A stretch of 64,000 nt of DNA from positions 62,001-126,000 of the IMG/VR virus record IMGVR_UViG_3300037258_000590; one strand, given 5' to 3'. The notes under the pieces are model-generated. The model made no database searches and had not been told where the DNA came from. It worked only from the letters and a program-made list of their open reading frames with translations. The first letter of the stretch is position 1, and each line of letters opens with the position of its first letter. Position numbers and translations under genes: made by a program. This DNA is from a virus. This document shows positions 5,540 through 17,207 of the stretch, piece by piece.

Positions 5540-5613
5540 AGGGGCGAGCCACACTGGCTCGGCGGCCGGTCTCCAACACCGGCAAAATGGGGGTTCGATT
5601 CCCTCCGCCCCTG
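5540..5613 (+). tRNA. t​RNA-Trp(CCA)
   Basis: Acceptor AGGGGCG/CGCCCCT, anticodon loop CTCCAAC, T arm GGGGG-TTCGATT-CCCTC, discriminator G. First gene of the array; no encoded CCA. Confidence 0.9.
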
Positions 5614-5925
5614 CGACCGTCAGCAAAGGCGAGAGCCCGCGCAGGCGCAGTCATAGCGGCCAGCTCGCTGGCCATTGACAAGACCATAGCGTGAGCATCC
5701 CCGGCGGGCCTTCCCCTTTGCGCCCGCCGGAAGGGCGAGGACAGCCGATCCTCGTCACGCGGGCTGTAACAGCTCGCAACGTGCGGTCCCGGCCCAGGCG
5801 GTTGTTGCTAGCCGCTGAGCCGGGACCTGCACGCCAGATGCTGCCCGGGGGTAGCCTAAGTGAGAGGCGTCCCGGAAATAAACGGGATAGTTCCAGGCGG
5901 AAACCCTGGTCCCCGGGCTTGGTAT
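5614..5925 (+). other. spacer without a recognised gene
   Basis: Between tRNA-Trp and the first tRNA-Ala. It holds a lone TTGACA at 5675 without a matching -10 box, and short GC-rich inverted repeats. No convincing ORF or tRNA is seen. Confidence 0.5.
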
Positions 5926-5997
5926 GGGGCCTTGGCGCAGTGGTAGCGCATCTGCATGGCATGCAGAGGGTCAGGAGTTCAAATCTCCTAGGCTCCA
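5926..5997 (+). tRNA. tRNA-Ala(GGC)
   Basis: Acceptor GGGGCCT/AGGCTCC with the G3:U70 alanine identity pair, anticodon loop ATGGCAT, T loop TTCAAAT, discriminator A. Confidence 0.92.
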
Positions 5998-6133
5998 CGA
6001 GGGTAACCCCCTTGAGGACGAGATGCGGTCCTCGCGCCCGGAGGCGGTTTCAGGCTAAACGTCCGGGGCGAAGCTGCTGATCCCCGGCTGGATCACCCTG
6101 AAGGACCGGCCGGTCCTGTACGCAGCGCACCAT

Positions 6134-6205
6134 GGGGTTGTAGCTCAGCGGTAGAGCAGCCGGCCCGCAACCGGCAGGTCCGCGGTTCAAATCCGCGTAA
6201 CTCCA
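6134..6205 (+). tRNA. tRNA-Ala(CGC), C33
   Basis: Acceptor GGGGTTG/TAACTCC with G3:U70, anticodon stem GCCGG/CCGGC, loop CCCGCAA, so position 33 is C. T loop TTCAAAT. Confidence 0.88.
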
Positions 6206-6375
6206 CGACCTGGGAGATCCTGGTCCGGATCCAGGCTCCTGCATTACCGTGCCAGCTGGCGATCGGCAGCTGGCGCCCGGAAAGGCCGCCGGGCAGGGAC
6301 GCGAGGATGTAGCTCAACGGGCAGAGCGCCCAGGATCAGGTTTTCCCGGGAAACCAGGAATTGCCGTAAGAATAG

Positions 6376-6449
6376 CGGGGCATGGCGCAGCTTGGCAGCG
6401 CGCTTCGTTCGGGACGAAGAGGCCACAGGTTCAAATCCTGTTGCCCCGA
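6376..6449 (+). tRNA. tRNA-Pro(CGG)
   Basis: Acceptor CGGGGCA/TGCCCCG, anticodon loop TTCGGGA, T loop TTCAAAT, discriminator A with C1-G72 as expected for proline. Confidence 0.92.
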
Positions 6450-6583
6450 CTAGGTACGGCGTGCAGGCAAAGACCTGTTCGCGGCATGTGCCCTTATAGT
6501 GCGGACCCGGCTCATTACCGGGACACCGCGGGCACCCCTTGCTGGAGAGGGAGCTGACTGAAATCCAGTGCCATACCTAAAAA

Positions 6584-6656
6584 CGGGCCGTGGCCTAGTG
6601 GCTATGGCGCCTGCCTGGGGGGCAGGAGGACGCCGGTTCGAGTCCGGCCGGCCCGA
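6584..6656 (+). tRNA. tRNA-Pro(GGG)
   Basis: Acceptor CGGGCCG/CGGCCCG, anticodon stem CCTGC/GCAGG, loop CTGGGGG, T loop TTCGAGT. Confidence 0.9.
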
Positions 6657-6744
6657 CTCTGACGTGTGCCGGCTCAAGGGCAGCGGACATGAAGGGCCTC
6701 CTCGCTCTGCCAGCACACTCCGGCGGGACGAAGCGCAGGAGATA

Positions 6745-6816
6745 CGGGGTGTGGTGTAGGGGTAAGCGTGCCTGGTCTGGAACCAGGAGGGTGAGGTTCG
6801 AGTCCTCGCACCCCGA
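6745..6816 (+). tRNA. tRNA-Pro(TGG), C33
   Basis: Acceptor CGGGGTG/CACCCCG and discriminator A fit proline. Anticodon stem CCTGG/CCAGG, loop TCTGGAA with C at position 33. The D arm is irregular. Confidence 0.82.
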
Positions 6817-6828
6817 CGAAATGCACGC

Positions 6829-6901
6829 GGGTTCCTAGCTGAGATGGATTAGCACCCGGCTGAAAACCAGGAGCAGGAAGGTTCGATACCTTCGGAACCC
6901 A
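6829..6901 (+). tRNA. tRNA-Phe(GAA)
   Basis: Acceptor GGGTTCC/GGAACCC, anticodon loop CTGAAAA, one mismatch in the anticodon stem, T loop TTCGATA. Confidence 0.9.
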
Positions 6902-7087
6902 CAACGGCATGACGCTGGCGGCGGCTATGAAACCGTCGTCGGTGACTGAGCGAGTAGCGCTCCGCCCGGTAAGCTGGCCCTGCCGGCAGGGCTGATCTCA
7001 TGCCGCCCGGGAACGGGCCTGGTCACACCTGCGGTCAGCCTCGCAAAGGCGCTTCAGGTCCCTGGCACCAGGTGGTTCCCGGGGCCT

Positions 7088-7159
7088 GCGGGTGTGGCCT
7101 AGTGGCTCGGGCATCAGCCTTCCAAGCTGACCACGCGAGTTCGATTCTCGCCACCCGCT
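7088..7159 (+). tRNA. tRNA-Gly(TCC)
   Basis: Acceptor GCGGGTG/CACCCGC, anticodon stem TCAGC/GCTGA, loop CTTCCAA, T loop TTCGATT, discriminator T. Confidence 0.92.
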
Positions 7160-7175
7160 CTATGACCGTAAACAT

Positions 7176-7247
7176 GCGCCGCTAACTCAGTGGCAGAGAG
7201 TCCGACTCTTAATCGGAAGGTCCGGGGTTCGATTCCCTGGCGGCGCA
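7176..7247 (+). tRNA. tRNA-Lys(CTT)
   Basis: Acceptor GCGCCGC/GCGGCGC, anticodon stem TCCGA/TCGGA, loop CTCTTAA, T loop TTCGATT. Confidence 0.92.
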
Positions 7248-7250
7248 CGA

Positions 7251-7523
7251 ATGGCGGTGATGACGACGGACCGCACAGAAGAACAGGCCGCTGCCGAAGT
7301 GGCCGCCGCGAACGCAGCCAGCATCCTGATTGGCTGGTCACCATGCCGGGCCACCTGCCCGCACTGCGGCTTGCGGGGAACGGCCGAAGTCCGGCAGTGC
7401 TACCGGGTCCAGCCGCCTGGTTCGTTCTCCCTGGCGGGCGTGCAGGTCAAGTTCCCGGCCCGGCTCGGCTGGGAATTCCGGTGCGGCATCTGCGGCGTAT
7501 CTGGCTCCGCCGCGCCGAAATAA
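7251..7523 (+). CDS. small zinc-ribbon protein
   Basis: A 90-residue protein lying between tRNA-Lys and the next tRNA. It has two CxxC pairs (CPHC at about residue 36 and CGIC at about 80), which predicts a zinc ribbon. The N-terminus is helical and acidic (TTDRTEEQAAAEVAAANAA). Codon third positions are G/C rich as in neighbouring real genes. Confidence 0.65.
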   Translation: MAVMTTDRTEEQAAAEVAAANAASILIGWSPCRATCPHCGLRGTAEVRQCYRVQPPGSFSLAGVQVKFPARLGWEFRCGICGVSGSAAPK

Positions 7524-7528
7524 ACCCT

Positions 7529-7601
7529 GGGCTCGTAGTCCAACTGGCAGAGCAGCGCTTTCAAACGGCGTACAGTGCGGGTTCGAATCCCGCCGGGCCC
7601 A
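7529..7601 (+). tRNA. tRNA with CAA anticodon (Leu), short variable loop
   Basis: Acceptor GGGCTCG/CGGGCCC, anticodon stem GCGCT/GGCGT closed by a T-G pair, loop TTCAAAC, variable loop only ACAGT, T arm GCGGG-TTCGAAT-CCCGC, discriminator A. The anticodon reads leucine UUG codons but the body is class I, unlike normal bacterial tRNA-Leu. Confidence 0.8.
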
Positions 7602-7606
7602 CTCAA

Positions 7607-7679
7607 TGCGGTATGGCGCAACTGGCAGCGCGTCCGGCTCTGACCCGGAAGGCTCCTGGTTCGAATCCAGGTGCCGCAG
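7607..7679 (+). tRNA. tRNA-Gln(CTG)
   Basis: Acceptor TGCGGTA/TGCCGCA, anticodon stem TCCGG/CCGGA, loop CTCTGAC, discriminator G as usual for glutamine. Confidence 0.92.
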
Positions 7680-7703
7680 CTACGCGTCATCTGACGCAAA
7701 CTC

Positions 7704-7772
7704 GCCGCCGCGCGCTGGCCGCGGCCTCGCTTTCGTAAGGCGGGAGGCCCGGTTCGACACCGGGGGGCGGCT
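7704..7772 (+). tRNA. tRNA-Thr(CGT), shortened D arm
   Basis: Acceptor GCCGCC/GGCGGC (7:66 is G-G), anticodon stem TCGCT/GGCGG, loop TTCGTAA, T loop TTCGACA, discriminator T. Only 16 bases separate acceptor and anticodon stems, so the D arm is truncated. Confidence 0.75.
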
Positions 7773-7856
7773 CGATCGTCGACAGCTGCTGTTGCAGGTT
7801 ACAGGCCTAACCGGCAGTAAAAGCCCAGGTCAGCGAAAACGGTTGCCGCCGTGCAT

Positions 7857-7930
7857 GTCCTCGTAGCCCAACGGCAGGAGGCACCAGGTCGAGAATCTGG
7901 ACAGTGCGGGTTCAAATCCCGCCGGGGACA
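7857..7930 (+). tRNA. tRNA with GAG anticodon (Leu), C33, short variable loop
   Basis: Acceptor GTCCTCG/CGGGGAC, anticodon stem CCAGG/TCTGG, loop TCGAGAA with C33, T arm GCGGG-TTCAAAT-CCCGC, discriminator A. Class I body with a leucine anticodon, like the neighbours at 7529 and 8916. Confidence 0.78.
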
Positions 7931-7933
7931 CGC

Positions 7934-8383
7934 TCAGGTCAAGATGGCCAGCAGCATGAGCAGGCACACCGCGGCTGACTCGGCGACCCCGGTGCGGGAA
8001 CCGTCCCTGATGGCCAGGGCCAGCGCTGACCCGGCGGCCAGGGACGCGACGATCAGCACGGCGCCTATTACCGGCAGCCAGCGTGGTGATCCTGGTGCAG
8101 GCAGCGAACCCTGCCGCCTTAGCTCATCTGGCAGAGCAGCGGCCCTGTAAGCCGCGGGTAGCCCGTTCGAACCGGGCAGGCGGCTCTGACGGCCGGTTCC
8201 GGCGCGCGGCGGCACGTACACCGGGACGTCCAGGCCGAACCGGCCGCAAGCCTGGTGCAGGGCCCGGTAGTTTCCGCCGGCCGGCCGCAGGCCCAGCGTC
8301 TGCAGCGCCTCGGCGATAGACCGGCTCTGGCGGACCGCCCGGGTGACGGCCGCGCGGTCGCGCAGGATGCTCTGTACTGGCAT
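7934..8383 (-). CDS. homing-nuclease-type DNA-binding segment plus membrane tail, antisense to tRNA-Thr
   Basis: From the ATG at 8383, the first 50 residues (AVTRAVRQSRSIAEALQTLG, then GGNYRALHQACGRFGLDVP) match the helix-turn-helix motif that accompanies many phage HNH endonucleases. No HNH core follows. The frame then passes through the antisense of the tRNA-Thr at 8113-8185 and ends in a hydrophobic helix (WLPVIGAVLIVASLAAGSAL). The DNA-binding segment looks genuine; the rest may be a chance extension. Confidence 0.4.
   Translation of the reverse strand: MPVQSILRDRAAVTRAVRQSRSIAEALQTLGLRPAGGNYRALHQACGRFGLDVPVYVPPRAGTGRQSRLPGSNGLPAAYRAAALPDELRRQGSLPAPGSPRWLPVIGAVLIVASLAAGSALALAIRDGSRTGVAESAAVCLLMLLAILT
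8113..8185 (+). tRNA. tRNA-Thr(TGT), C33
   Basis: Acceptor GCCGCCT/AGGCGGC, anticodon stem GCGGC/GCCGC, loop CCTGTAA with C33, T loop TTCGAAC, discriminator T. Confidence 0.9.
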
Positions 8384-8419
8384 ACGGCAACGGTACGGCG
8401 GCTGGGCTGCCAGTTCCAG

Positions 8420-8491
8420 TGGGGTGTGGGGTAACCGGCAGCCCGGAGAGTTTTGGTCTCTCTTGTCCAGGTTCGAATCCTGGCACCTCAG
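8420..8491 (+). tRNA. tRNA-Gln(TTG)
   Basis: Acceptor TGGGGTG/CACCTCA, anticodon stem GAGAG/CTCTC, loop TTTTGGT, T arm CCAGG-TTCGAAT-CCTGG, discriminator G. Confidence 0.9.
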
Positions 8492-8605
8492 CAAGGCTGT
8501 CCCAGACACTCAGCGGCAGCCATCCAGTTGCCAGGTAACTGCCCGGTCAGCCGGGCGCTTGACGGTTAATTGTCAGTTAATCGCACTTAATTGCTAGTCA
8601 CGTGT

Positions 8606-8679
8606 GCCTCCGTAGCTCTAGCGGATAGAGCGCCTGCTCGGTACGCAGGAGGTCCCGAGTTCGAATCTCGGTGGAGGCT
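8606..8679 (+). tRNA. tRNA-Thr(GGT), C33
   Basis: Acceptor GCCTCCG/TGGAGGC, anticodon stem CCTGC/GCAGG, loop TCGGTAC with C33, T loop TTCGAAT, discriminator T. Confidence 0.9.
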
Positions 8680-8808
8680 CTGAGCGATGCGCCTCGCTCG
8701 CAAAACCAGGGCGCGGGGTGCGGCTGGTCCTCTCAAAACCAGTTCTTGCCCGCTCTGCGGAGCGGATGTGCGGTGTAAGCCCCGGCCTTGATCCTGCCGG
8801 GCAGCCAT

Positions 8809-8881
8809 GCGGACGTAGCGCAGCTGGTAGCGCGTTACCTTGCCAAGGTAAAGGCCGCGGGTTCGAGACCCGTCGTCCGCT
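8809..8881 (+). tRNA. tRNA-Gly(GCC)
   Basis: Acceptor GCGGACG/CGTCCGC, anticodon stem TTACC/GGTAA, loop TTGCCAA, T loop TTCGAGA, discriminator T. Confidence 0.93.
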
Positions 8882-8915
8882 CGGCCCCGGCCTGGTGAAT
8901 GCAGGCAGGGCTCAT

Positions 8916-8989
8916 GTCCAGGTAGCCCAACGGCAGGAGGCACTGCGCTCAGACCGCAGGATGTGCGGGTTCGAATCCCGCCTTGGACA
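8916..8989 (+). tRNA. tRNA with CAG anticodon (Leu), short variable loop
   Basis: Acceptor GTCCAGG/CTTGGAC, anticodon stem CTGCG/CGCAG, loop CTCAGAC, variable loop about five bases, discriminator A. The D arm is nearly identical to the GAG tRNA at 7857. Confidence 0.82.
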
Positions 8990-9061
8990 CGATGGCGCTG
9001 GAAGGATCACGGCCGCGGGGTCTGCGCGTACCTGGCGGTTCGCCTGCCTTCCCCCATCCTC

Positions 9062-9147
9062 GGAGCATTGGCACAGCGGCAACTGCAGCGCCCTGCTAAG
9101 GCGTACGCCAGGTGACTGGTGCGGAGGTTCGAGTCCTCCATGCTCCG
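9062..9147 (+). tRNA. tRNA-Ser(GCT)
   Basis: Acceptor GGAGCAT/ATGCTCC, loop CTGCTAA, long class II variable arm, T arm GGAGG-TTCGAGT-CCTCC, discriminator G. Confidence 0.9.
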
Positions 9148-9154
9148 CGAACCA

Positions 9155-9239
9155 GGAGGATTCGCCTAGTGGCTTATGGCGCACGCCCGGAAAGCGTGTT
9201 GGGGTAACACCCTCGCAGGTTCAAATCCTGCATCCTCCG
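9155..9239 (+). tRNA. tRNA-Ser(GGA), C33
   Basis: Acceptor GGAGGAT/ATCCTCC, anticodon stem CACGC/GCGTG, loop CCGGAAA with C33, long variable arm, discriminator G. Confidence 0.9.
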
Positions 9240-9626
9240 CTCCCGGCCGGAGGCAAGTAACTATCCGGAGTCTCTTGATTCCAGCCCGTAGTTGGAGCTA
9301 TGTTGGCCTTGGGACGTTGGTGAACACTTGGGCTTCAAACGCAGGGAGCTGTCGTGCTGGTGAAAGCCTGCTACGCGGACCTCGGCCCTGCGTGAGAGGA
9401 ACTGGGGTTCGGCGACACGTGAATGGTCAGTCGGTGACTGGCGCTTGTTGTGGGTCTTGAGGTACCCGTAAGCCGCCGGGGAGCCAGACGGGACCGCGGC
9501 CCCTGAAGGGCAGCATGCGACGCGGAACCAGAGGCACCCAGACAGGAGGCATACCCGCCGTCTTCCCGGCAGCGGGTCACTGCCCAGCCAAAGGAACAGC
9601 AATCCCCGGCGCAGGGTCCTCACCCA
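9240..9626 (+). other. 387-base gap in the tRNA array
   Basis: No tRNA, no convincing ORF on either strand. The sequence is less GC-rich than the surrounding tRNAs and contains several short hairpins, so an unassigned RNA is possible but not supported. Confidence 0.4.
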
Positions 9627-9711
9627 GGAGGATTCGCCTAGTGGCCTATGGCGCCGGCTTTGAATCCCGGTTGGGGTGACACCCTCGCAGGTTCAAATCC
9701 TGCATCCTCCG
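9627..9711 (+). tRNA. tRNA-Ser(TGA)
   Basis: Acceptor GGAGGAT/ATCCTCC, loop TTTGAAT, C-C mismatch closing the anticodon stem, long variable arm, discriminator G. Close copy of the Ser(GGA) gene at 9155. Confidence 0.88.
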
Positions 9712-9724
9712 CTCGCATCACCCA

Positions 9725-9814
9725 GGAGGGGTAAGCCGAGCTGCGGCCTATCGGCACTTGTCCCGAAAACAAGCTGGGAGCAATCCCGTGTGGGTTCGAG
9801 ACCCACCTCCTCCG
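9725..9814 (+). tRNA. tRNA-Ser(CGA), C33
   Basis: Acceptor GGAGGGG/CTCCTCC, anticodon stem CTTGT/ACAAG, loop CCCGAAA with C33, long variable arm, T loop TTCGAGA, discriminator G. Confidence 0.9.
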
Positions 9815-9951
9815 CGTAATATCCTGATTTCTGCGGGGCGTCCTATAGGCAACGCCGCTCAGACGGTAACAGCGCGGTCGTGCGACCCCCTGAGCAGGCC
9901 AGCCAGCAGGCCGCAGCGAGACTGGCCCCCGCGGTGTACTCGCTTCATCCT

Positions 9952-10025
9952 GGGCCGGCAGCACAGTCGGTTCGTGCAGCTGCCTGATACGCAGACGGGC
10001 GCTGGTTCAATTCCAGCCCGGCCCA
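9952..10025 (+). tRNA. tRNA-Ile(GAT)
   Basis: Acceptor GGGCCGG/CCGGCCC, loop CTGATAC, T arm GCTGG-TTCAATT-CCAGC, discriminator A. Confidence 0.88.
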
Positions 10026-10031
10026 CTACAC

Positions 10032-10105
10032 GGCGGTATAGCTCAGTCCGGCAGAGCGATCCCCCCATAAGGGAGAGGCCGGTGGATCGAAGCCACCTAC
10101 CGCTA
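10032..10105 (+). tRNA. tRNA-Met or Ile2 (CAT), C33
   Basis: Acceptor GGCGGTA/TACCGCT, anticodon stem ATCCC/GGGAG with an end mismatch, loop CCCATAA with C33, T loop ATCGAAG. Whether the CAT anticodon is methionine or lysidine-modified isoleucine cannot be told. Confidence 0.82.
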
Positions 10106-10115
10106 CGCAGTTCCC

Positions 10116-10190
10116 GGGCCAGTGGCCAATATGGTGACGGCGCCCGTCTTATATACGGGAAATGTGCAGGTTCAACCCCTGCCTGGCCCA
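10116..10190 (+). tRNA. tRNA-Ile(TAT)
   Basis: Acceptor GGGCCAG/CTGGCCC, anticodon stem CCCGT/ACGGG, loop CTTATAT, T loop TTCAACC. Confidence 0.9.
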
Positions 10191-10241
10191 CGAAAGGAAT
10201 TTCCGTGAACGCTAAACGACCCCTGCGAATATGACTCGCAG

Positions 10242-10314
10242 GAGCCGGTAGCTCAGCGGTATGAGCGGCGGGCCTTTAACCCGCGCGACCTGGGTTCGAA
10301 TCCCAGCCGGCCCA
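10242..10314 (+). tRNA. tRNA-Lys(TTT), C33
   Basis: Acceptor GAGCCGG/CCGGCCC with an A-C mismatch at 2:71, anticodon stem GCGGG/CCCGC, loop CCTTTAA with C33, T arm CTGGG-TTCGAAT-CCCAG. Confidence 0.88.
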
Positions 10315-10321
10315 CGATCAC

Positions 10322-10395
10322 GCGCTGGTAGCTCAGCTGGACAGAGCGACCGTCTTCTAAGCGGCAGGCCCAGGGTTCGAATCCCTGCCGGCGCA
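10322..10395 (+). tRNA. tRNA-Arg(TCT)
   Basis: Acceptor GCGCTGG/CCGGCGC, loop CTTCTAA, D loop with the arginine-type A20, T loop TTCGAAT. Confidence 0.9.
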
Positions 10396-10482
10396 CATGA
10401 ACGGCCGCGCTAAAAGACGGCCCGGTGGAACGGGGCACGTGACCCTGGACTCACAGCGAGCGTCCGTCAAGCGCGAGCACAC

Positions 10483-10555
10483 GCTCCGTTGGAGTAACGG
10501 ACATCTCACCTGGCCCTCAACCAGGAGACTGCCGGTTCGATCCCGGCACGGAGCA
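10483..10555 (+). tRNA. tRNA-Glu(CTC), C33
   Basis: Acceptor GCTCCGT/ACGGAGC, anticodon stem CCTGG/CCAGG, loop CCCTCAA with C33, T loop TTCGATC. Confidence 0.9.
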
Positions 10556-10566
10556 CGCAGTAACCA

Positions 10567-10639
10567 GGCCCCATGGAGCTACTGGCTAAGCCACCGGTCT
10601 TTCACACCGGAGAAGACGGGTCGGAACCGTCTGGGGTCA
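10567..10639 (+). tRNA. tRNA-Glu(TTC)
   Basis: Acceptor GGCCCCA/TGGGGTC, anticodon stem CCGGT/ACCGG, loop CTTTCAC, T loop GTCGGAA. Confidence 0.88.
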
Positions 10640-10640
10640 C

Positions 10641-10714
10641 TGCGGGGTGCAGCAGTTAGGTAGCTGACTGGGCTCATAATCCAGAAGACGCGGGTTCAAA
10701 TCCCGCCCCCGCTA
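10641..10714 (+). tRNA. initiator-like tRNA-fMet(CAT)
   Basis: Loop CTCATAA. Position 1:72 is a T-T mismatch above six G/C-rich pairs, and the D stem has A11:U24; both are hallmarks of bacterial initiator tRNA. The anticodon stem carries a G29-G30-G31 run paired with C, C and U. T loop TTCAAAT, discriminator A. Confidence 0.85.
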
Positions 10715-10718
10715 CTAT

Positions 10719-10789
10719 TCTGGTATCCGTTAACGGTAAACGAGCAGACTGTTAATCTGTCCCTCCTGGTTCGAATCCAGGTACCAGAG
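10719..10789 (+). tRNA. tRNA-Asn(GTT)
   Basis: Acceptor TCTGGTA/TACCAGA, anticodon stem GCAGA/TCTGT, loop CTGTTAA, T loop TTCGAAT, discriminator G. Confidence 0.92.
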
Positions 10790-10865
10790 CGAGGTGCCGC
10801 AAGCCGCTGCACGAAACCGCCACGTGGCCTCATACGGCGGGGAATTGCCCTTTCGCAGCACCCTA

Positions 10866-10939
10866 GGTGACGTAGCACAACCGGCCAGTGCCCCACCCTG
10901 TCACGGTGGATTGTGCGGGTTCGAATCCCGTCGTCATCG
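10866..10939 (+). tRNA. tRNA-Asp(GTC)
   Basis: Acceptor GGTGACG/CGTCATC, anticodon stem CCACC/GGTGG, loop CTGTCAC, T loop TTCGAAT, discriminator G. Confidence 0.92.
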
Positions 10940-11277
10940 CCAGCAATCAGGCCGGGTGCAGCCTGCCGCGGATCGTCGCGTGCGCACCCTGACAGCGGGT
11001 GCCGGCGGCGGCAGAGCGGTCTTACGGCTGCACCCGGCCCTCACCAGGTAAGAGCCGCTCACGGCCCGGACCTGACACACGAACGCAAGACTCAGGGCGG
11101 CTGGTTACGCGATCGCACCCTGACATCCGGAACTGGCCGGAACGATCAACCTGAGTGACCGGCCCGAGACGGCGGCGCCATTCCCAGGGATTAAGCGGGA
11201 CAGCTTTCCCGGACCGCGTAAAGCACAGACCGCATTCCGGCCCCAGCAGGCATTGCACACGCCGGAAGCTTACATAC
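10940..11277 (+). other. spacer in tRNA array, no supported gene
   Basis: A 338-base stretch between tRNA-Asp and tRNA-Val. A minus-strand frame at 11022-11258 (starting MQCLLGPECG) is open but has no supporting features. No tRNA is seen. Confidence 0.4.
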
Positions 11278-11349
11278 GGGCGGCTGGCGCAGCGGCAGCG
11301 CGCTACCCCGACACGGTAGAGGCCACTGGTTCAAATCCAGTGCCGCCCA
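11278..11349 (+). tRNA. tRNA-Val(GAC), C33
   Basis: Acceptor GGGCGGC/GCCGCCC, anticodon stem CTACC/GGTAG, loop CCGACAC with C33, T loop TTCAAAT. Confidence 0.9.
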
Positions 11350-11361
11350 CGTAGTATCCAT

Positions 11362-11434
11362 GCGCCCGCAGCACGACGGATCGTGCAGACGGCTACGAAC
11401 CGGAAGGGTGGGAGTTCGAATCTCTCCGGGCGCG
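11362..11434 (+). tRNA. tRNA-Arg(ACG)
   Basis: Acceptor GCGCCCG/CGGGCGC, loop CTACGAA, only three clear pairs in the anticodon stem, D loop with A20, discriminator G. Would need A-to-I editing by the host TadA enzyme. Confidence 0.85.
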
Positions 11435-11445
11435 CGTAATACCAA

Positions 11446-11517
11446 GGGCGGTTGGCGCAGCGGCAGCGCGGCTCGTTCACACCGAGTAGGCCGCAGGTTC
11501 GATCCCTGCACCGCCCA
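11446..11517 (+). tRNA. tRNA-Val(CAC)
   Basis: Acceptor GGGCGGT/ACCGCCC, anticodon stem GCTCG/CGAGT, loop TTCACAC, T loop TTCGATC. Confidence 0.92.
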
Positions 11518-11520
11518 CTA

Positions 11521-11588
11521 GCTGACGAGAAGCAGGATTGCGGTCGCGACGGCGACCAGGGGTCCGAGTCCCCGTTCTCGTCAGCCCA
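11521..11588 (+). ncRNA. tRNA-like RNA with 11-bp closing stem
   Basis: GCTGACGAGAA (11521-11531) pairs perfectly with TTCTCGTCAGC (11575-11585), then CCA follows. Inside are a 3-bp hairpin, a 6-bp hairpin GGTCGC/GCGACC with a 4-base loop, and a T-arm-like hairpin GGGG-TCCGAGT-CCCC. There is no 7-base anticodon loop, so it is not a decoding tRNA. It lies exactly between tRNA-Val and tRNA-His, inside the array. Confidence 0.6.
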
Positions 11589-11591
11589 CAT

Positions 11592-11665
11592 GGCGGCCGA
11601 AGCCAAACAGGCTGAGGCACTGGACTGTGAATCCAGGTAAGCGGGTTCAAGTCCCGCCGGTCGCC
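11592..11665 (+). tRNA. tRNA-His(GTG)
   Basis: G at -1 faces C73 as required for histidine identity. Acceptor GCGGCCG/CGGTCGC, anticodon stem CTGGA/TCCAG, loop CTGTGAA, T loop TTCAAGT. Confidence 0.93.
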
Positions 11666-11669
11666 CCGC

Positions 11670-11750
11670 GGGTCGTTGGCAGAGCGGACGATTGCGCCTG
11701 GCTGTAAACCAGGTTCTCCGGACACGGTGGTTCAAATCCATCACGGCCCA
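11670..11750 (+). tRNA. tRNA-Tyr(GTA)
   Basis: Acceptor GGGTCGT/ACGGCCC, anticodon stem CCTGG/CCAGG, loop CTGTAAA, class II variable arm, T loop TTCAAAT. Confidence 0.92.
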
Positions 11751-11764
11751 CGTAACCCGGTGGC

Positions 11765-12007
11765 ATGATGGCTGTCGTGGATATCACGATCATGTACCGC
11801 AAAGACGCCGACCACCCGCAGCACGGCGGCAGCGGCGGTGAGGAGTGGCGCATCGAAGCCGTAGGCATCGAAGGCTATGACGGCGACCGGTGCGTTCAGG
11901 CTGTGCTGGATGCGGGCGCGCTGATGAAATCCGCCGCGTACGGAAATGCGCGGTTGATCGTGGAAGGGCTGCGCGGCGCCAGCCCGGATGCTGTGGCAGG
12001 TGCATGA
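11765..12007 (+). CDS. small hypothetical protein
   Basis: An 80-residue acidic protein (MMAVVDITIMYRKDADHPQH) placed inside the tRNA array between tRNA-Tyr and tRNA-Arg(CCG). The N-terminus reads as beta strands, the C-terminus as helices. It is the first of three consecutive plus-strand genes here. No family is recognised. Confidence 0.6.
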   Translation: MMAVVDITIMYRKDADHPQHGGSGGEEWRIEAVGIEGYDGDRCVQAVLDAGALMKSAAYGNARLIVEGLRGASPDAVAGA

Positions 12008-12095
12008 ATGCGCACCGGCCTGGGACTGCTGGCAAGTCTGCAGCCGGAAGCCCAGGCCCTGCCGTTAGCACAGCACGTATGGCAGGATGACCCGC

Positions 12096-12845
12096 ATGGA
12101 ACTGACGCAGCTGGCCCCGCCGGGCCACGGGCTTATCTCCAAGCTGACCGCTGACGATGGCGATTTCCGGGTTACCTGGGATCCCGGCAACCCGGAGGAG
12201 ACCGAGAACGCCCGGCAGGCTTTCGCTGACCTGCGCCGCAGCGGGTACGCAATCCACCGGGTGGAAGGCGGGCGCCGGGAGGTGATCCGTGAGTTCGATC
12301 CGGCGGCCGGAGCCATGCAGCTCGTGGCGCACCGGCCGAACCGCGGCGGCTTATCATGCCCGCGGGAGAGTTCCGGTACTGCCGTGATCCGGAAGCTGCG
12401 TGGCTGGCCAGCGGCAACAGCATGCCCGCAAGTACGGACCCGGCAACCAGGTTCTTCACGTGGTCTGCTGCTGGTTCCGGTGTCATCTGCACGACCGGGA
12501 ATACCGCATCCGGTACGGTTATCGTTTACAGCCCGGACGGGAGTGCAGGCCTGTGGTACGGCACGTTCCCTTCCGGCCCTGGCTCAGGACTACCGCAGGC
12601 ACAGATTGAGCAGCTGGTCGCGGAACACCAGCGCGAGGCGGAAAAAGCTGCCGCGCGCCGCCAGGTCGCTGATGCCAGGGCGCACCAGTTGCTGCTGTCC
12701 CTGCTCGATGAAATCCAGGCAGCGGATTACGCGCAGCATGGCTGGTTCGAGCTGCGCGGCTCGGCAGGCGGCTGGTGGCGCATCCGCGGAGCCGGCCAGG
12801 CGGGGAACGTTGATGAACTGGAAGCTTCAGGCGGCGAGCGGATAG
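12096..12845 (+). CDS. conserved small phage protein, frame extended by overlap
   Basis: The first 92 codons (MELTQLAPPGHGLISKLTAD through HRPNRGG) look like a known actinophage small-protein family with a conserved GHGLI and a DPAA segment near the end. After that the frame stays open for another 155 codons but overlaps the next gene in another frame and reads as low-quality sequence. The functional protein probably ends near 12370; a lost stop codon or small indel is likely. A start at 12087 is also possible. Confidence 0.5.
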   Translation: MELTQLAPPGHGLISKLTADDGDFRVTWDPGNPEETENARQAFADLRRSGYAIHRVEGGRREVIREFDPAAGAMQLVAHRPNRGGLSCPRESSGTAVIRKLRGWPAATACPQVRTRQPGSSRGLLLVPVSSARPGIPHPVRLSFTARTGVQACGTARSLPALAQDYRRHRLSSWSRNTSARRKKLPRAARSLMPGRTSCCCPCSMKSRQRITRSMAGSSCAARQAAGGASAEPARRGTLMNWKLQAASG

Positions 12846-12985
12846 CGTCCTGGTGCTGTCATCCGCCAGGCGCCCTGCCGGACGCTGACGCGTACATCGC
12901 CCAGATGCTGCACCTGGCTGCTGACGAGCCTGGGTTCCGGGCCGCCGGCAACAGGACCGGGCGGCGCCAGCCTGCCGCAGCGTGA
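12356..12985 (+). CDS. hypothetical protein with central coiled region
   Basis: A 209-residue protein starting MPAGEFRYCR. Residues 1-70 look like beta structure (TGNTASGTVIVYSPDG), residues 80-115 form a charged helix (QIEQLVAEHQREAEKAAARR), and the C-terminal part is Trp-rich (GWWRI) with helices. No catalytic motif is seen. It ends just before tRNA-Arg(CCG). Confidence 0.6.
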   Translation: MPAGEFRYCRDPEAAWLASGNSMPASTDPATRFFTWSAAGSGVICTTGNTASGTVIVYSPDGSAGLWYGTFPSGPGSGLPQAQIEQLVAEHQREAEKAAARRQVADARAHQLLLSLLDEIQAADYAQHGWFELRGSAGGWWRIRGAGQAGNVDELEASGGERIASWCCHPPGALPDADAYIAQMLHLAADEPGFRAAGNRTGRRQPAAA

Positions 12986-12989
12986 TCTA

Positions 12990-13061
12990 GCGCCTATCGT
13001 CCAACGGACAGGGCTCTGGCCCCCGAAGCCAGCGATGCAGGTTCGAATCCTGCTGGGCGCG
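12990..13061 (+). tRNA. tRNA-Arg(CCG), C33
   Basis: Acceptor GCGCCTA/TGGGCGC, anticodon stem CTGGC/GCCAG, loop CCCCGAA with C33, T loop TTCGAAT, discriminator G. Confidence 0.9.
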
Positions 13062-13134
13062 CTGGTACCCCGTGAAGCCTCGTGCTAGCTGCGGGCTCCG
13101 CGTGAACGCCCCGCTGCTGAACGGGGTACCTCCT

Positions 13135-13207
13135 GGCGGCATGGCTGAACGGACAGGCCCGCGTCTGCAAAACGTGCGCTAACCCGGTTCGACTCCGGGT
13201 GCCGCTT
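13135..13207 (+). tRNA. tRNA-Cys(GCA)
   Basis: Acceptor GGCGGCA/TGCCGCT, anticodon stem CGCGT/ACGTG, loop CTGCAAA, T loop TTCGACT, discriminator T as expected for cysteine. Confidence 0.92.
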
Positions 13208-13211
13208 CTGA

Positions 13212-13284
13212 TGGCTCGTAGTCCAGCGGACGAGGGCACCGGCCTCCTAAGCCGGGGGCGCGGGTTCGATTCCCGCCGGGCCAG
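13212..13284 (+). tRNA. tRNA-Arg(CCT)
   Basis: Acceptor TGGCTCG/CGGGCCA, anticodon stem CCGGC/GCCGG, loop CTCCTAA, T loop TTCGATT, discriminator G. Last gene of the array. Confidence 0.92.
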
Positions 13285-13322
13285 CAATTCCAGGGCGCTC
13301 ACGCTATGATCGTGGTTCCGTA

Positions 13323-13401
13323 CCTTCCCGGTGCGCTAGCTGGCGGTTACTTCATCATTCTGGATGCGAATCGTGCCGCTGGCGTCTCGATCTCGGGGAG
13401 G
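13323..13401 (+). ncRNA. Y-RNA-like RNA, unit 1 (minimal)
   Basis: The ends pair: CCTTCCCG (13323-13330) with CGGGGAGG (13394-13401). The 5' strand continues GTGCG and the 3' strand is preceded by CTCGATCT, both conserved in all four units. The short interior has no tRNA-like module. It lies in the four-unit tandem directly upstream of the Ro60 gene, which in other bacteria is the usual place for Y RNA genes. Confidence 0.7.
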
Positions 13402-13419
13402 ACTGACCGCGAAACAGTG

Positions 13420-13561
13420 TCTTCCGGTGCGCAGGCAAGCGGGTACTTCGCTGACCATCCAATTTCAGCGGGTAGCTCAGTGGCAGAGCACTCGGCTGAG
13501 CCGAGAGGTCGCGGGTTCGAATCCCGCCCTACGTCCCGCCGCCGATCTTGATCTCGGAAGA
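13420..13561 (+). ncRNA. Y-RNA-like RNA, unit 2 with tRNA-like module
   Basis: TCTTCCG (13420-13426) pairs with CGGAAGA (13555-13561). The stem differs from the other units at several positions but pairing is kept. The interior holds a D-arm sequence (13485-13499), a hairpin CTCGG-CTGAG-CCGAG in place of an anticodon arm, and a perfect T arm GCGGG-TTCGAAT-CCCGC (13511-13527), in normal tRNA order. Confidence 0.75.
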
Positions 13562-13587
13562 ATGCGCGTACAACTGAATACTCCGCA

Positions 13588-13700
13588 CCTCCCGGTGCGA
13601 TTGCTGCGGGTTACTTCGTGGTTCGATTCCGCGCAGTCAGCTTGCCTGGCTGCTGCCCGACTGGCTTGGGCTATCCTGCAGCGCCTTTGACCTCGGGAGG
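13588..13700 (+). ncRNA. Y-RNA-like RNA, unit 3
   Basis: CCTCCCG (13588-13594) pairs with CGGGAGG (13694-13700), again with compensatory changes. GTGCG and GCGGGTTACTTCG follow the 5' strand as in unit 1 and 2. A T-arm-like hairpin (CGTGG-TTCGATT-CCGCG) and a D-arm-like segment follow, suggesting a degenerate tRNA-like module. Confidence 0.68.
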
Positions 13701-13715
13701 AGCACGCGTCACGGC

Positions 13716-13844
13716 GTGCCCGGTGCGCAGGTGAGGAGTTCTTCTCCTGTTAGAGAAAGATGCGGGTTCGAATCCCGCCGCGGCTCCGGCCGTGTAGCTC
13801 AATGGCAGAGCATCTGACCGCCTCGCCGACCTGATCTCGGGCAC
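13716..13844 (+). ncRNA. Y-RNA-like RNA, unit 4 with circularly permuted tRNA mimic
   Basis: GTGCCCG (13716-13722) pairs with CGGGCAC (13838-13844). Inside, the T arm (13762-13778) comes before the D arm (13797-13811). The acceptor halves CGCGGCT and GGCCGTG are joined by two bases and pair over 7 bp. GTTAGA (13749-13754) and TCTGAC (13813-13818) form an anticodon-type stem that leads into the Ro-binding stem. This is the layout described for YrlA-type bacterial Y RNAs. Confidence 0.82.
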
Positions 13845-13897
13845 TATCCGTGACGCCCGCTCCTCCTGCCAGCACAGCAAGCGAGAGGAGCATTTTC

Positions 13898-15577
13898 ATG
13901 TCCAGGTACAACACCCCGGCAGCCAAGGCTGCTGTGCGCAGCCCGGTCACGTCAGAAGCCACCCCGAGCGGCCAGACGTACGAAGGCGCACCCGGGTACG
14001 CGCGTGACGCTCGCGGCGAGCTTTTCCTTTTGTCGGTCGCCTACATGGGCGCGGATGGCGCATTCTACGAAACCAGCACCCAGCGCGATACCCGGTTCGC
14101 GAACCTGGTCCGCCAGGTCGCTGTCGAAGACCCGGCATGGATGGCGGGTTTCGTCCCGTGGCTGCGCAACGGCGCGCACATGCGCACCGCGTCGGTGGTC
14201 GCCGCGGCCGAGGCGCTGCAGGCCATGCTCGCCGCCGGGCTGCCGGGCGGCCGGGCGCTCATCTCCGCAGCGCTCCAGCGGGCTGATGAGCCGGGTGAGC
14301 TGCTGGCCTACTGGCACGGCCGGTACGGGCGCAATGAGCCCAAGCCGCTCAAGCGCGGCATCGCCGACGCGATCGTCCGGTTGTACTCGGAGTTCAGCCT
14401 GCTTCGCTATGACACGGACTCGCACGGCTACCGGTTCGGCGACGTAATCGAACGCGTTCACGTCACCGGGGAGCACCCGGAGGTCAAGGGCACCTGGCGG
14501 GGTGCGCTGTACGGGCACGCCATCGACCGGCGCCACGGCCGGGACAACCCGGTGCCAGGCGAGCTGCGGATGGTCGGCGCGAACGCCATCCTGCGGGTGC
14601 GGGCCGCGAGAGACCCATCCGTCCTGCTTAACACAGGCGCGCTGCGGGCTGCCGGCATGACATGGGAAGACACCTTGTCGCTGGCCGGGAGCCGGGTGGA
14701 CAAGGCGAAGCTGTGGTCCGCGCTGATCCCGTCGATGAGCTTCATGGCGTGCTTGCGCAATCTGCGCAACTTCGATGAGGCCGGCGTCCCGGACGAGGTG
14801 ACGGCAACCGTGGCGGCCCGGCTGAGCGATCCGGAGCAGGTCGCGAAGTCCCGGCAGTTCCCGTTCCGGTTCCTGGCCGCGTACCGGGCGGCGCCGTCGC
14901 TACGCTGGGCCTACCCGCTGGAGCAAGCACTCAACTTGTCGCTGGCGAACGTGCCAGCATTGCCGGGCCGCACGCTGGTCCTGGTCGACCGGTCCCTGTC
15001 CATGTGGAGCGCGAAGATGAGCACCCATTCGGACATGCCGTGGGCTGATGCTGCGGCCATCTTCGGCGCGGCCGTGGCTAGCCGTGCCGCGCACGCCGAC
15101 CTGGCGGAATTTTCCAGCCGCTCCGCGCGGATCGAATTCAGCCGCGCCGAATCCGTGCTGCGGATCATCGGGCGGTTTCACGCCGGCGACAGTCCAGGCA
15201 GCATCATCGGGACCGGGACAGACATCCCGCGTGCCGTTCGCGATAACCTGCGCCCGGATCACGCTCGGGTGGTGATCGTCACCGATGAGCAGAGCGAGCC
15301 AGGCATCCTGCCGTCCAACATCTACGGCGGCTACAGCAGCGACGCGATGCCGCCTACCCGGATCGATGATCTCATTCCGGCCTCTGTGCCGGTGTACCTG
15401 TGGAACATCGGCGGCTACAAGCGCGGTGTTCTCCCTTCAGGAAGCGGTAGCCGGCACACGTTCGGCGGCCTGACCGATTCCGCCTTCGAGATGATCAGCT
15501 TGCTCGAAGCACGACGGGACGCGCACTGGCCGTGGGCACCGGCGCTGCTCGCGGATCACAGCCGCGGCAGCGTCTGA
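13898..15577 (+). CDS. rsr: Ro60/TROVE-domain RNA-binding protein (Rsr-like)
   Basis: A 559-residue protein. The N-terminal 350 residues form the helical TROVE ring that binds misfolded RNA 3' ends in its hole and Y RNA on its outside. The C-terminal vWA domain has an intact metal-binding motif DRSLS (in LVLVDRSLSMWS) and TDEQSE. The ATG at 13898 is preceded by GAGAGGAG. The frame is open from 13850, but the SD site decides for 13898. Four Y-RNA-like genes lie immediately upstream. In bacteria Ro60 with Y RNA scaffolds nucleases for RNA decay and stress survival; phage copies are known in mycobacteriophages. Confidence 0.95.
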   Translation: MSRYNTPAAKAAVRSPVTSEATPSGQTYEGAPGYARDARGELFLLSVAYMGADGAFYETSTQRDTRFANLVRQVAVEDPAWMAGFVPWLRNGAHMRTASVVAAAEALQAMLAAGLPGGRALISAALQRADEPGELLAYWHGRYGRNEPKPLKRGIADAIVRLYSEFSLLRYDTDSHGYRFGDVIERVHVTGEHPEVKGTWRGALYGHAIDRRHGRDNPVPGELRMVGANAILRVRAARDPSVLLNTGALRAAGMTWEDTLSLAGSRVDKAKLWSALIPSMSFMACLRNLRNFDEAGVPDEVTATVAARLSDPEQVAKSRQFPFRFLAAYRAAPSLRWAYPLEQALNLSLANVPALPGRTLVLVDRSLSMWSAKMSTHSDMPWADAAAIFGAAVASRAAHADLAEFSSRSARIEFSRAESVLRIIGRFHAGDSPGSIIGTGTDIPRAVRDNLRPDHARVVIVTDEQSEPGILPSNIYGGYSSDAMPPTRIDDLIPASVPVYLWNIGGYKRGVLPSGSGSRHTFGGLTDSAFEMISLLEARRDAHWPWAPALLADHSRGSV

Positions 15578-17075: not shown

Positions 17076-17207
17076 ATGACAGGTCAAGTCCAGGATCTGA
17101 CCGCCCGCTCGGCGCTAGAGCGCCTGATCCAGGCTGGCCCGGCAGGGCTGGCGGCAGGCCGCCCGCTGAGGCGGGACCTGCGGTCCCAGACGCAGATCAG
17201 GCTCTAG
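17076..17207 (+). pseudogene. truncated paralogue of the HTH gene at 16032
   Basis: The 43-residue product (MTGQVQDLTARSALERLIQA, then GPAGLAAGRPL) aligns with the first 30 residues of the 16032 protein and then stops. Promoter and first exon-like segment are shared, so it is a partial duplicate. It ends inside the 3' end of the converging glycosyltransferase gene. Confidence 0.55.

What the first reader, a model, noticed from the sequence alone, without database searches (positions are those of the whole stretch)
13323..15577. Four tandem Y-RNA-like genes upstream of a phage Ro60 homologue
Each unit has terminal stems that differ in sequence but pair perfectly (7-8 bp), a conserved GTGCG after the 5' strand and ATCTCGG-like sequence in the 3' strand. 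This covariation is strong evidence for structured RNAs with a common protein partner. The Ro60/TROVE protein starts 54 bases after the last unit. Four Y RNAs in one locus, of different complexity, suggest a family of scaffolds or RNA-decay guides made by the phage.
Basis: partly seen in the sequence, partly recalled or inferred. Interest (0 to 1): 0.92.

Follow-up and report, generated by a model that had tools for sequence, protein, structure and literature searches.

The report
Phage Y RNA array with tRNA mimics
A large phage carries four small RNA genes in a row before the gene for their partner protein, Ro60; three of the RNAs carry copies of a transfer RNA with its parts in a rearranged order, one of them in an order I found in only four other loci, and this makes them a good test bed for what such RNAs do for a virus.

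Summary
Four units (13321-13847, + strand) share a Ro-binding frame: a covarying terminal stem, CGGTGCG and A(U/C)CUCG. They lie between a 39-tRNA array and a TROVE/Ro60 gene (13898-15577) of a 210-kb virus record. The same frame occurs in 177 units at 51 viral and phage Ro60 loci and beside 78 of 80 actinobacterial chromosomal Ro60 genes. Every confident model hit lies on the Ro60 strand. Tandem Y RNAs beside Ro60 are therefore ordinary for this clade, and phage Y RNAs were already reported.

Units 3 and 4 have the known YrlA order (T arm, acceptor hairpin, D arm). Unit 1 is minimal. Unit 2 has a different circular permutation: acceptor 3' strand, discriminator, encoded CCA, short linker, acceptor 5' strand, D arm, anticodon-like arm, T arm. 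I found this order in only five loci, all viral, each with 7/7 acceptor pairs and CCA exactly in place.

Best reading: exchangeable tRNA-like heads that recruit tRNA-handling enzymes to Ro60. Ro60 partnership is very likely; the function of the heads is inference. New variant of a known kind.

The parts
5540..13285 (+). array of 39 predicted tRNA genes directly upstream, same strand, one or more for each of the 20 amino acids
   Evidence: ARAGORN; Rfam RF00005 hits
13321..13403 (+). Y RNA unit 1, minimal head: stem 13323-13330 with 13394-13401, motif CGGTGCG 13329-13335, ATCTCG 13390-13395
   Evidence: R1 60.1 bits
13417..13564 (+). Y RNA unit 2, head is a tRNA permuted at the T-arm/acceptor junction (class C)
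   Evidence: R2 38.2 bits
13447..13457 (+). unit 2: acceptor 3' strand TTCGCTG (13447-13453), discriminator A (13454), encoded CCA (13455-13457)
   Evidence: 7/7 pairs with 13466-13472
13466..13472 (+). unit 2: acceptor 5' strand CAGCGGG, joined to CCA by an 8-nt linker
13475..13527 (+). unit 2: D arm 13475-13489, anticodon-like arm 13491-13505 (stem closed by a short loop), T arm 13511-13527, in ordinary order
   Evidence: RF00005 46.5 bits over 13471-13529
13585..13703 (+). Y RNA unit 3, permuted tRNA head: T arm 13618-13632, acceptor hairpin 13633-13656, degenerate D arm 13655-13671
   Evidence: R2 49.5 bits
13713..13847 (+). Y RNA unit 4, YrlA-type permuted head: hairpin with loop CUGUUA 13742-13757, T arm 13762-13778, acceptor hairpin 13779-13794, D arm 13797-13811
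   Evidence: RF02553 YrlA 44.2 bits, below gathering 69; R2 117.5 bits, E 2.9e-25
13859..13891 (+). hairpin GCTCCTCCTGC/GCGAGAGGAGC whose 3' arm holds the likely ribosome binding site, followed by ATTTTC and ATG
   Evidence: class statistics
13898..15577 (+). Ro60 (TROVE) protein, 559 aa, HEAT-repeat ring plus von Willebrand A domain with MIDAS D364-x-S366-x-S368, T441, D463

Best explanation
The locus makes one Ro60 ring protein and four Y RNAs that compete for it. Each RNA docks through the same end frame: the terminal stem, GGUGCG/AUCUCG, and a second helix next to UACUUC. Each presents a different head. Unit 1 has almost no head and would act as a plain lid or stabiliser. Units 3 and 4 present a tRNA elbow, with T and D arms and a looped acceptor, so that tRNA-recognising proteins bind Ro60; by precedent in Deinococcus and Salmonella the likely client is the host exonuclease PNPase. 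Unit 2 presents a tRNA core opened at another point, with an acceptor stem and an internal CCA; this would attract enzymes that read the acceptor/CCA end, such as RNase P, 3'-end processing enzymes or the CCA-adding enzyme. The most likely use in a phage with 39 tRNA genes is handling of structured RNA, above all tRNA, during infection. Shown here: the sequence frame, covariation, the tRNA-like order of parts, conservation beside Ro60 and the Ro60 fold. Inferred: transcription, binding, recruitment and purpose. My confidence that the units are Ro60-bound Y RNAs is about 0.93; the figure below is for the whole adaptor mechanism.
For: End frame: covariation statistics. Frame beside Ro60: all 108 R1 hits (E <= 0.1) and all 168 R2 hits in 509 kb lie on the Ro60 strand, most within 2 kb upstream of Ro60. 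177 units in 51 loci. The same in 78 of 80 bacterial loci. Heads: T arm, acceptor hairpin and D arm covary (helices 3-5); unit 4 matches Rfam YrlA. Class C: 5 of 5 loci with 7/7 acceptor pairs and CCA exactly after the discriminator; shuffles give 7/7 in 0.2-0.7% and 7/7 with CCA in at most 0.02%. Protein: TROVE; model pLDDT 83.8; matches Ro60 of Thermus phage phiLo, Xenopus Ro with RNA and Deinococcus Rsr at Z 20-25. Precedent: YrlA tethers Rsr to PNPase and is a substrate of DusA and TruB (PMC8394870). A Listeria phage with an Rsr homologue has three highly transcribed regions nearby that its authors suggest may be Y RNAs (PMC12282133).
Against: No expression, binding or structure data for this phage. 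PNPase tethering is borrowed from other bacteria. The window's phage record has no RtcB and no RNA_ligase domain, so the RNA-repair operon context of Salmonella is missing. Class C heads differ in their anticodon arms (window has a collapsed loop, L040 a Phe-like UUGAAAA), so no single aminoacyl identity is preserved.
Confidence: 0.5

Rival explanations
1. Decoys: the tRNA-like heads soak up host tRNA-cleaving defence nucleases or tRNA-sensing regulators, and Ro60 only protects the decoys.
For: The array abuts 39 tRNA genes. Many heads of related loci carry anticodon-loop-like hairpins such as CUGUUAA, CUCUUAA and CUUGUAA. In Salmonella YrlA was proposed as a competitive inhibitor of an anticodon nuclease (PMC7790460).
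Against: Hosts carry the same arrays, so the mimics are not a phage-only counter-defence. Heads often lack an anticodon loop (window unit 2 has a collapsed one). Salmonella YrlA fragments were not detected when tRNAs were cleaved.
Confidence: 0.2
2. Gates only: the Y RNAs cover the RNA-binding surface of Ro60 and set its stability and access. The tRNA-like heads serve RNA folding, stability or modification, not recruitment.
For: Minimal units with almost no head are common: 29 of 89 units in the first scan have 50-63 nt between motifs. Gating is an established idea for Y RNAs (own knowledge; Wolin group reviews).
Against: D and T arms are held by compensatory change (helices 3-5), and class C keeps CCA in five of five. 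Pure gating would not need either.
Confidence: 0.22
3. Decayed tRNA genes at the edge of the tRNA array that look like Y RNAs by chance.
For: Units 2 and 4 contain strong tRNA pieces, and GenBank records of relatives label some units as tRNA genes.
Against: Compensatory changes in the end frame, conservation in distant loci and strand bias. In class C the ordinary acceptor pairing is only 3-6 of 7 while the permuted one is 7 of 7.
Confidence: 0.01

Closest known systems
Bacterial YrlA Y RNAs (Rfam RF02553)
   Same: Terminal Ro-binding stem; head with T arm, acceptor hairpin and D arm in permuted order; gene next to Ro60/Rsr. Unit 4 aligns to model positions 23-88 of 114.
   Different: Score 44.2 is under the gathering score 69, and no unit of the clade passes it. 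Unit 1 has no tRNA head. Unit 2 has another permutation with an encoded CCA.
Rsr-yrlBA-rtcBA operon of Salmonella; RYPER (Rsr-Y RNA-PNPase) of Deinococcus
   Same: Ro60 homologue with neighbouring Y RNAs, at least one of them tRNA-like (PMC8394870, PMC7790460).
   Different: No RtcB or RNA ligase domain found in this virus record. RNAs lie upstream of Ro60, four units. PNPase link untested.
Actinobacteriophage and actinobacterial Ro60 loci (for example Streptomyces phages GiJojo, Kela; Streptomyces chromosomes)
   Same: Ro60 at 38-60% identity with units of the same frame nearby, mostly upstream.
   Different: Class C head not seen in the ten isolates or 80 bacterial loci searched.
Circularly permuted tRNA genes of algae and Archaea, and two-piece tmRNA
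   Same: 3' part precedes 5' part; the acceptor ends are joined by a short intervening loop; two archaeal genes encode CCA (PMC3978253).
   Different: Here the permuted tRNA is held inside a Ro-binding stem, not known to be excised, and its anticodon arm is often not functional.

Membership tests
Bacterial Y RNA (Ro60-bound ncRNA) | Encoded next to a Ro60/Rsr gene | tested here: met
   TROVE PF05731 gene 53 bases downstream; 51 viral/phage and 78 bacterial loci alike
Bacterial Y RNA (Ro60-bound ncRNA) | 5' and 3' ends pair in a conserved stem (pairing only, not binding) | tested here: met
   Pairing and covariation met
Bacterial Y RNA (Ro60-bound ncRNA) | Physical association with Ro60 | not testable with these tools
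   Needs co-purification
YrlA (RF02553) | Passes Rfam gathering score | tested here: not met
   Unit 4 44.2 bits against 69; units 1-3 no YrlA match at E <= 1. Unit 4 is called YrlA-like by architecture, not by Rfam score
YrlA (RF02553), units 3 and 4 | T arm, acceptor hairpin, D arm in that order within the Ro stem | tested here: met
   Met for unit 4 and, with a degenerate D arm, unit 3
YrlA (RF02553), unit 2 | T arm, acceptor hairpin, D arm in that order within the Ro stem | tested here: not met
   D arm precedes T arm; acceptor hairpin comes first
tRNA gene (RF00005), unit 2 | Acceptor strands at the two ends of the tRNA core pair in ordinary order | tested here: not met
   Ordinary order 3-4 of 7 pairs; permuted order 7 of 7
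Ro60 / TROVE protein | TROVE domain, HEAT ring plus vWA with MIDAS | tested here: met
   PF05731; invariant D364, S366, S368, T441, D463; Z 25.3 to 9kop, 22.0 to 1yvp, 20.4 to 2nvo

The most novel reading that the evidence does not exclude
Unit 2 and its four counterparts are a new Y RNA class that is opened by tRNA-processing enzymes between CCA and nucleotide 1. This would give a two-piece RNA, held together by base pairs and bound to Ro60, with a true CCA 3' end that can be read or even charged like a tRNA.
Probability: 0.15. Interest if true: 0.85.

Novelty: new variant of a known kind. Interest (0 to 1): 0.6.

Why it matters
The clients of tRNA-like Y RNAs are largely unknown. A single phage locus that offers one Ro60 with four heads (none, two YrlA-type, one with a different permutation and CCA) is a natural domain-swap experiment: each head can be deleted or used as bait on its own. 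The rare class shows that the Ro-binding stem can be grafted at two different points of a tRNA ring, which constrains how Y RNAs arose from tRNA genes. It also shows that Rfam YrlA scores the units of this clade below its threshold and that several GenBank phage records label Y RNAs as tRNAs.

Tried and rejected
First motif scan of relatives found nothing because of an off-by-one in the stem register; corrected. Regex classification of D/T arm order was unreliable and was replaced. ARAGORN on units gives many spurious tRNA calls that start inside the Ro stem and misses window unit 2. MAFFT misaligns the CCA region of class C, so no covariance model was built for it. A hairpin threshold of 6 bp before Ro60 did not beat shuffles; 8 Watson-Crick pairs did. 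RNA-repair partners RtcB and RNA_ligase not found in the record. Papers of the Wolin group that define YrlA (Chen 2014, Sim 2018, Sim 2020) are not held; statements about them rest on citing papers or memory. No paper on the phiLo Ro60 structure was found.

Full report
Setting. The window is bases 62001-126000 of a virus record of 210,383 bases. ARAGORN finds 39 tRNA genes at 5540-13285, all on the + strand and with all 20 amino acids represented. The last tRNA ends at 13285, the first unit of the finding starts near 13321, and the Ro60 reading frame runs from 13898 to 15577. Everything points the same way, so a common transcript is plausible but not shown.

The observation. Stem + CGGTGCG ... 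A(C/T)CTCG + complementary stem occurs exactly four times in the 64 kb, at the reported places; Markov-shuffled sequence gives 0.06. The protein is a TROVE protein.

The family. tblastn finds Ro60 homologues in 57 phage records, the nearest in Streptomyces, Arthrobacter and Gordonia phages annotated 'Ro-like RNA binding protein'. 43 viral contig loci and 10 isolates were read. Two covariance models were built: R1 from 28 minimal units, R2 from 34 long units; window units 1 and 4 are among them, units 2 and 3 are not. Over 509 kb on both strands, all 108 R1 hits and all 168 R2 hits at E <= 0.1 lie on the Ro60 strand; some R2 hits are junctions of neighbouring tRNA genes. After removal of those, 177 units remain in 51 loci, mostly 2-5 per locus. 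A few loci are near duplicates (for example L038 and L053). The last unit often ends 40-60 bases before Ro60; in some loci the array sits farther away or downstream.

Not phage-specific. Of 80 actinobacterial chromosomal Ro60 loci, 78 have 1-4 units of the same kind, all on the Ro60 strand. Phage Y RNAs were known before: PMC7765460 and PMC12282133 state this, citing Sim and Wolin 2018 and Chen 2014. Array and partner are therefore a new member of a known kind.

Structure. RNAalifold on the long units gives 35 pairs, 25 with compensatory change. Named-structure counts: 94.6% of cells paired, 226 both-sided changes, covariation score 0.533 against 0.171 for shuffles and 0.083-0.144 for slid partners. 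Helices are the Ro stem, a second helix beside a conserved UACUUC-like element, T arm, acceptor hairpin and D arm. The subtype with GAAGUGC instead of GGUGCG has UUGUCG or UUAUCG on the other side (L006, L007).

Heads in the window. Unit 1: minimal. Unit 4: YrlA-type, RF02553 at 44.2 bits, under the gathering score, R2 117.5 bits. Unit 3: the same order with a degenerate D arm. Unit 2: the Rfam tRNA model matches positions 6-65, without the acceptor. Its D arm precedes its T arm.

Unit 2 in detail. The seven bases before U8 (CAGCGGG, 13466-13472) pair 7/7, two of them G.U, with TTCGCTG (13447-13453), which lies upstream and is followed by A and CCA (13454-13457) and an 8-nt linker. The same plan, found without requiring CCA, occurs in L020, L040, L278 and L318 with different stem sequences: TCCCGAT/ATCGGGG, TCCTGTC/GACAGGG, TTCGGAT/ATCCGGG, TCTCGCA/TGCGAGG. 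All have A or G as discriminator and CCA directly after it. In ordinary order only 3-6 of 7 acceptor pairs form (L040 reaches 6 only when a T-stem base is counted in). Shuffling the segment gives 7/7 in 0.2-0.7% and 7/7 plus CCA in at most 0.02% per locus. Among the other 12 hits of the same test, all without a T arm downstream of the D arm, 10 lack CCA. All five lie in multi-unit arrays; in the window and L318 a Ro60 frame follows directly, in L278 the array is followed by a Ro60-like start, and in L020 and L040 the array lies downstream of Ro60. So the Ro stem is grafted on the tRNA ring at the T-arm/acceptor junction, not at the anticodon side as in YrlA.

Protein. AlphaFold2 model with 18 sequences: pLDDT 83.8, pTM 0.84. 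Best structural matches are 9kop (TROVE domain) and 9l5y (Ro60 of Thermus phage phiLo) at Z 25.3 and 23.1, Xenopus Ro with RNA (1yvp, 22.0) and Deinococcus Rsr (2nvo, 20.4), well above the vWA-only matches at 10-11. The MIDAS residues D364, S366, S368, T441 and D463 are invariant in the aligned homologues.

Mechanism. The best-supported reading is one Ro60 with exchangeable RNA adaptors whose tRNA-like heads recruit tRNA-handling enzymes. The end frame and the heads are shown by sequence; recruitment is inferred from the Rsr-Y RNA-PNPase precedent (PMC8394870). Decoy and pure-gate models remain open. RNA repair is less likely for this phage because no RtcB or RNA ligase domain was found in its record, though Streptomyces phage Kela has an RNA ligase gene directly before Ro60.

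Origin. R2 also matches the junctions of adjacent tRNA genes (window 10276-10357, 3' half of tRNA-Lys plus 5' half of tRNA-Arg, 36.8 bits). A YrlA-type head has the same order as such a junction, so capture of two neighbouring tRNA halves from a tandem array by a Ro stem is a simple route to the permutation. This is a conjecture.

Limits. No expression or binding data; the defining YrlA papers could not be read; E-values from the models are rough by design.

Noticed in passing
13859-13891 and upstream of Ro60 in relatives: A hairpin just before the Ro60 start holds the likely ribosome binding site in its 3' arm. Stems of 8 or more Watson-Crick pairs occur in 19 of 43 viral and 38 of 80 bacterial loci, against 2.7-4% of shuffles, nearly all with an SD-like 3' arm. 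Possible terminator or translation switch between Y RNAs and Ro60.
   Followed up: partly
linkers between units, e.g. between window units 2 and 3 (13565-13584); L002, L003, L005, L022: Linkers between units often carry ACAACTGAAT or ACAACTTCA; a possible processing site.
   Followed up: no
L002 3677-3804, L022 3710-3836, L023 3682-3812: A further head type made of several hairpins, conserved in three loci, without clear tRNA arms.
   Followed up: no
GiJojo (L046), Alone3 (L047), Frankenweenie (L050), VanLee (L052): Annotated tRNA-Arg, tRNA-Ser, tRNA-Pro and tRNA-Arg genes just before Ro60 overlap Y RNA units and are probably misannotations.
   Followed up: partly
long units of many loci, e.g. 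L008, L010, L025: An extra hairpin before the T arm has loops like anticodon loops (CUGUUAA, CUCUUAA, CUUGUAA).
   Followed up: partly
L318 4783-4899: First unit of the L318 array seems to be yet another tRNA-like arrangement with a T arm and no clear D arm.
   Followed up: no
L048 2229-2981: RNA ligase gene directly before Ro60 in Streptomyces phage Kela.
   Followed up: no
L051 5079-5242, L047 4967-5199: Matches to the manA RNA motif just under its gathering score between tRNA-Lys genes of two Streptomyces phages.
   Followed up: no
17197-19359: Minus-strand glycosyltransferase gene that seems to be interrupted by an intein with a LAGLIDADG endonuclease domain.
   Followed up: no
10032-10106: Predicted tRNA-Tyr with the unusual anticodon ATA next to tRNA-Ile(GAT) and tRNA-Ile(TAT); identity doubtful.
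   Followed up: no
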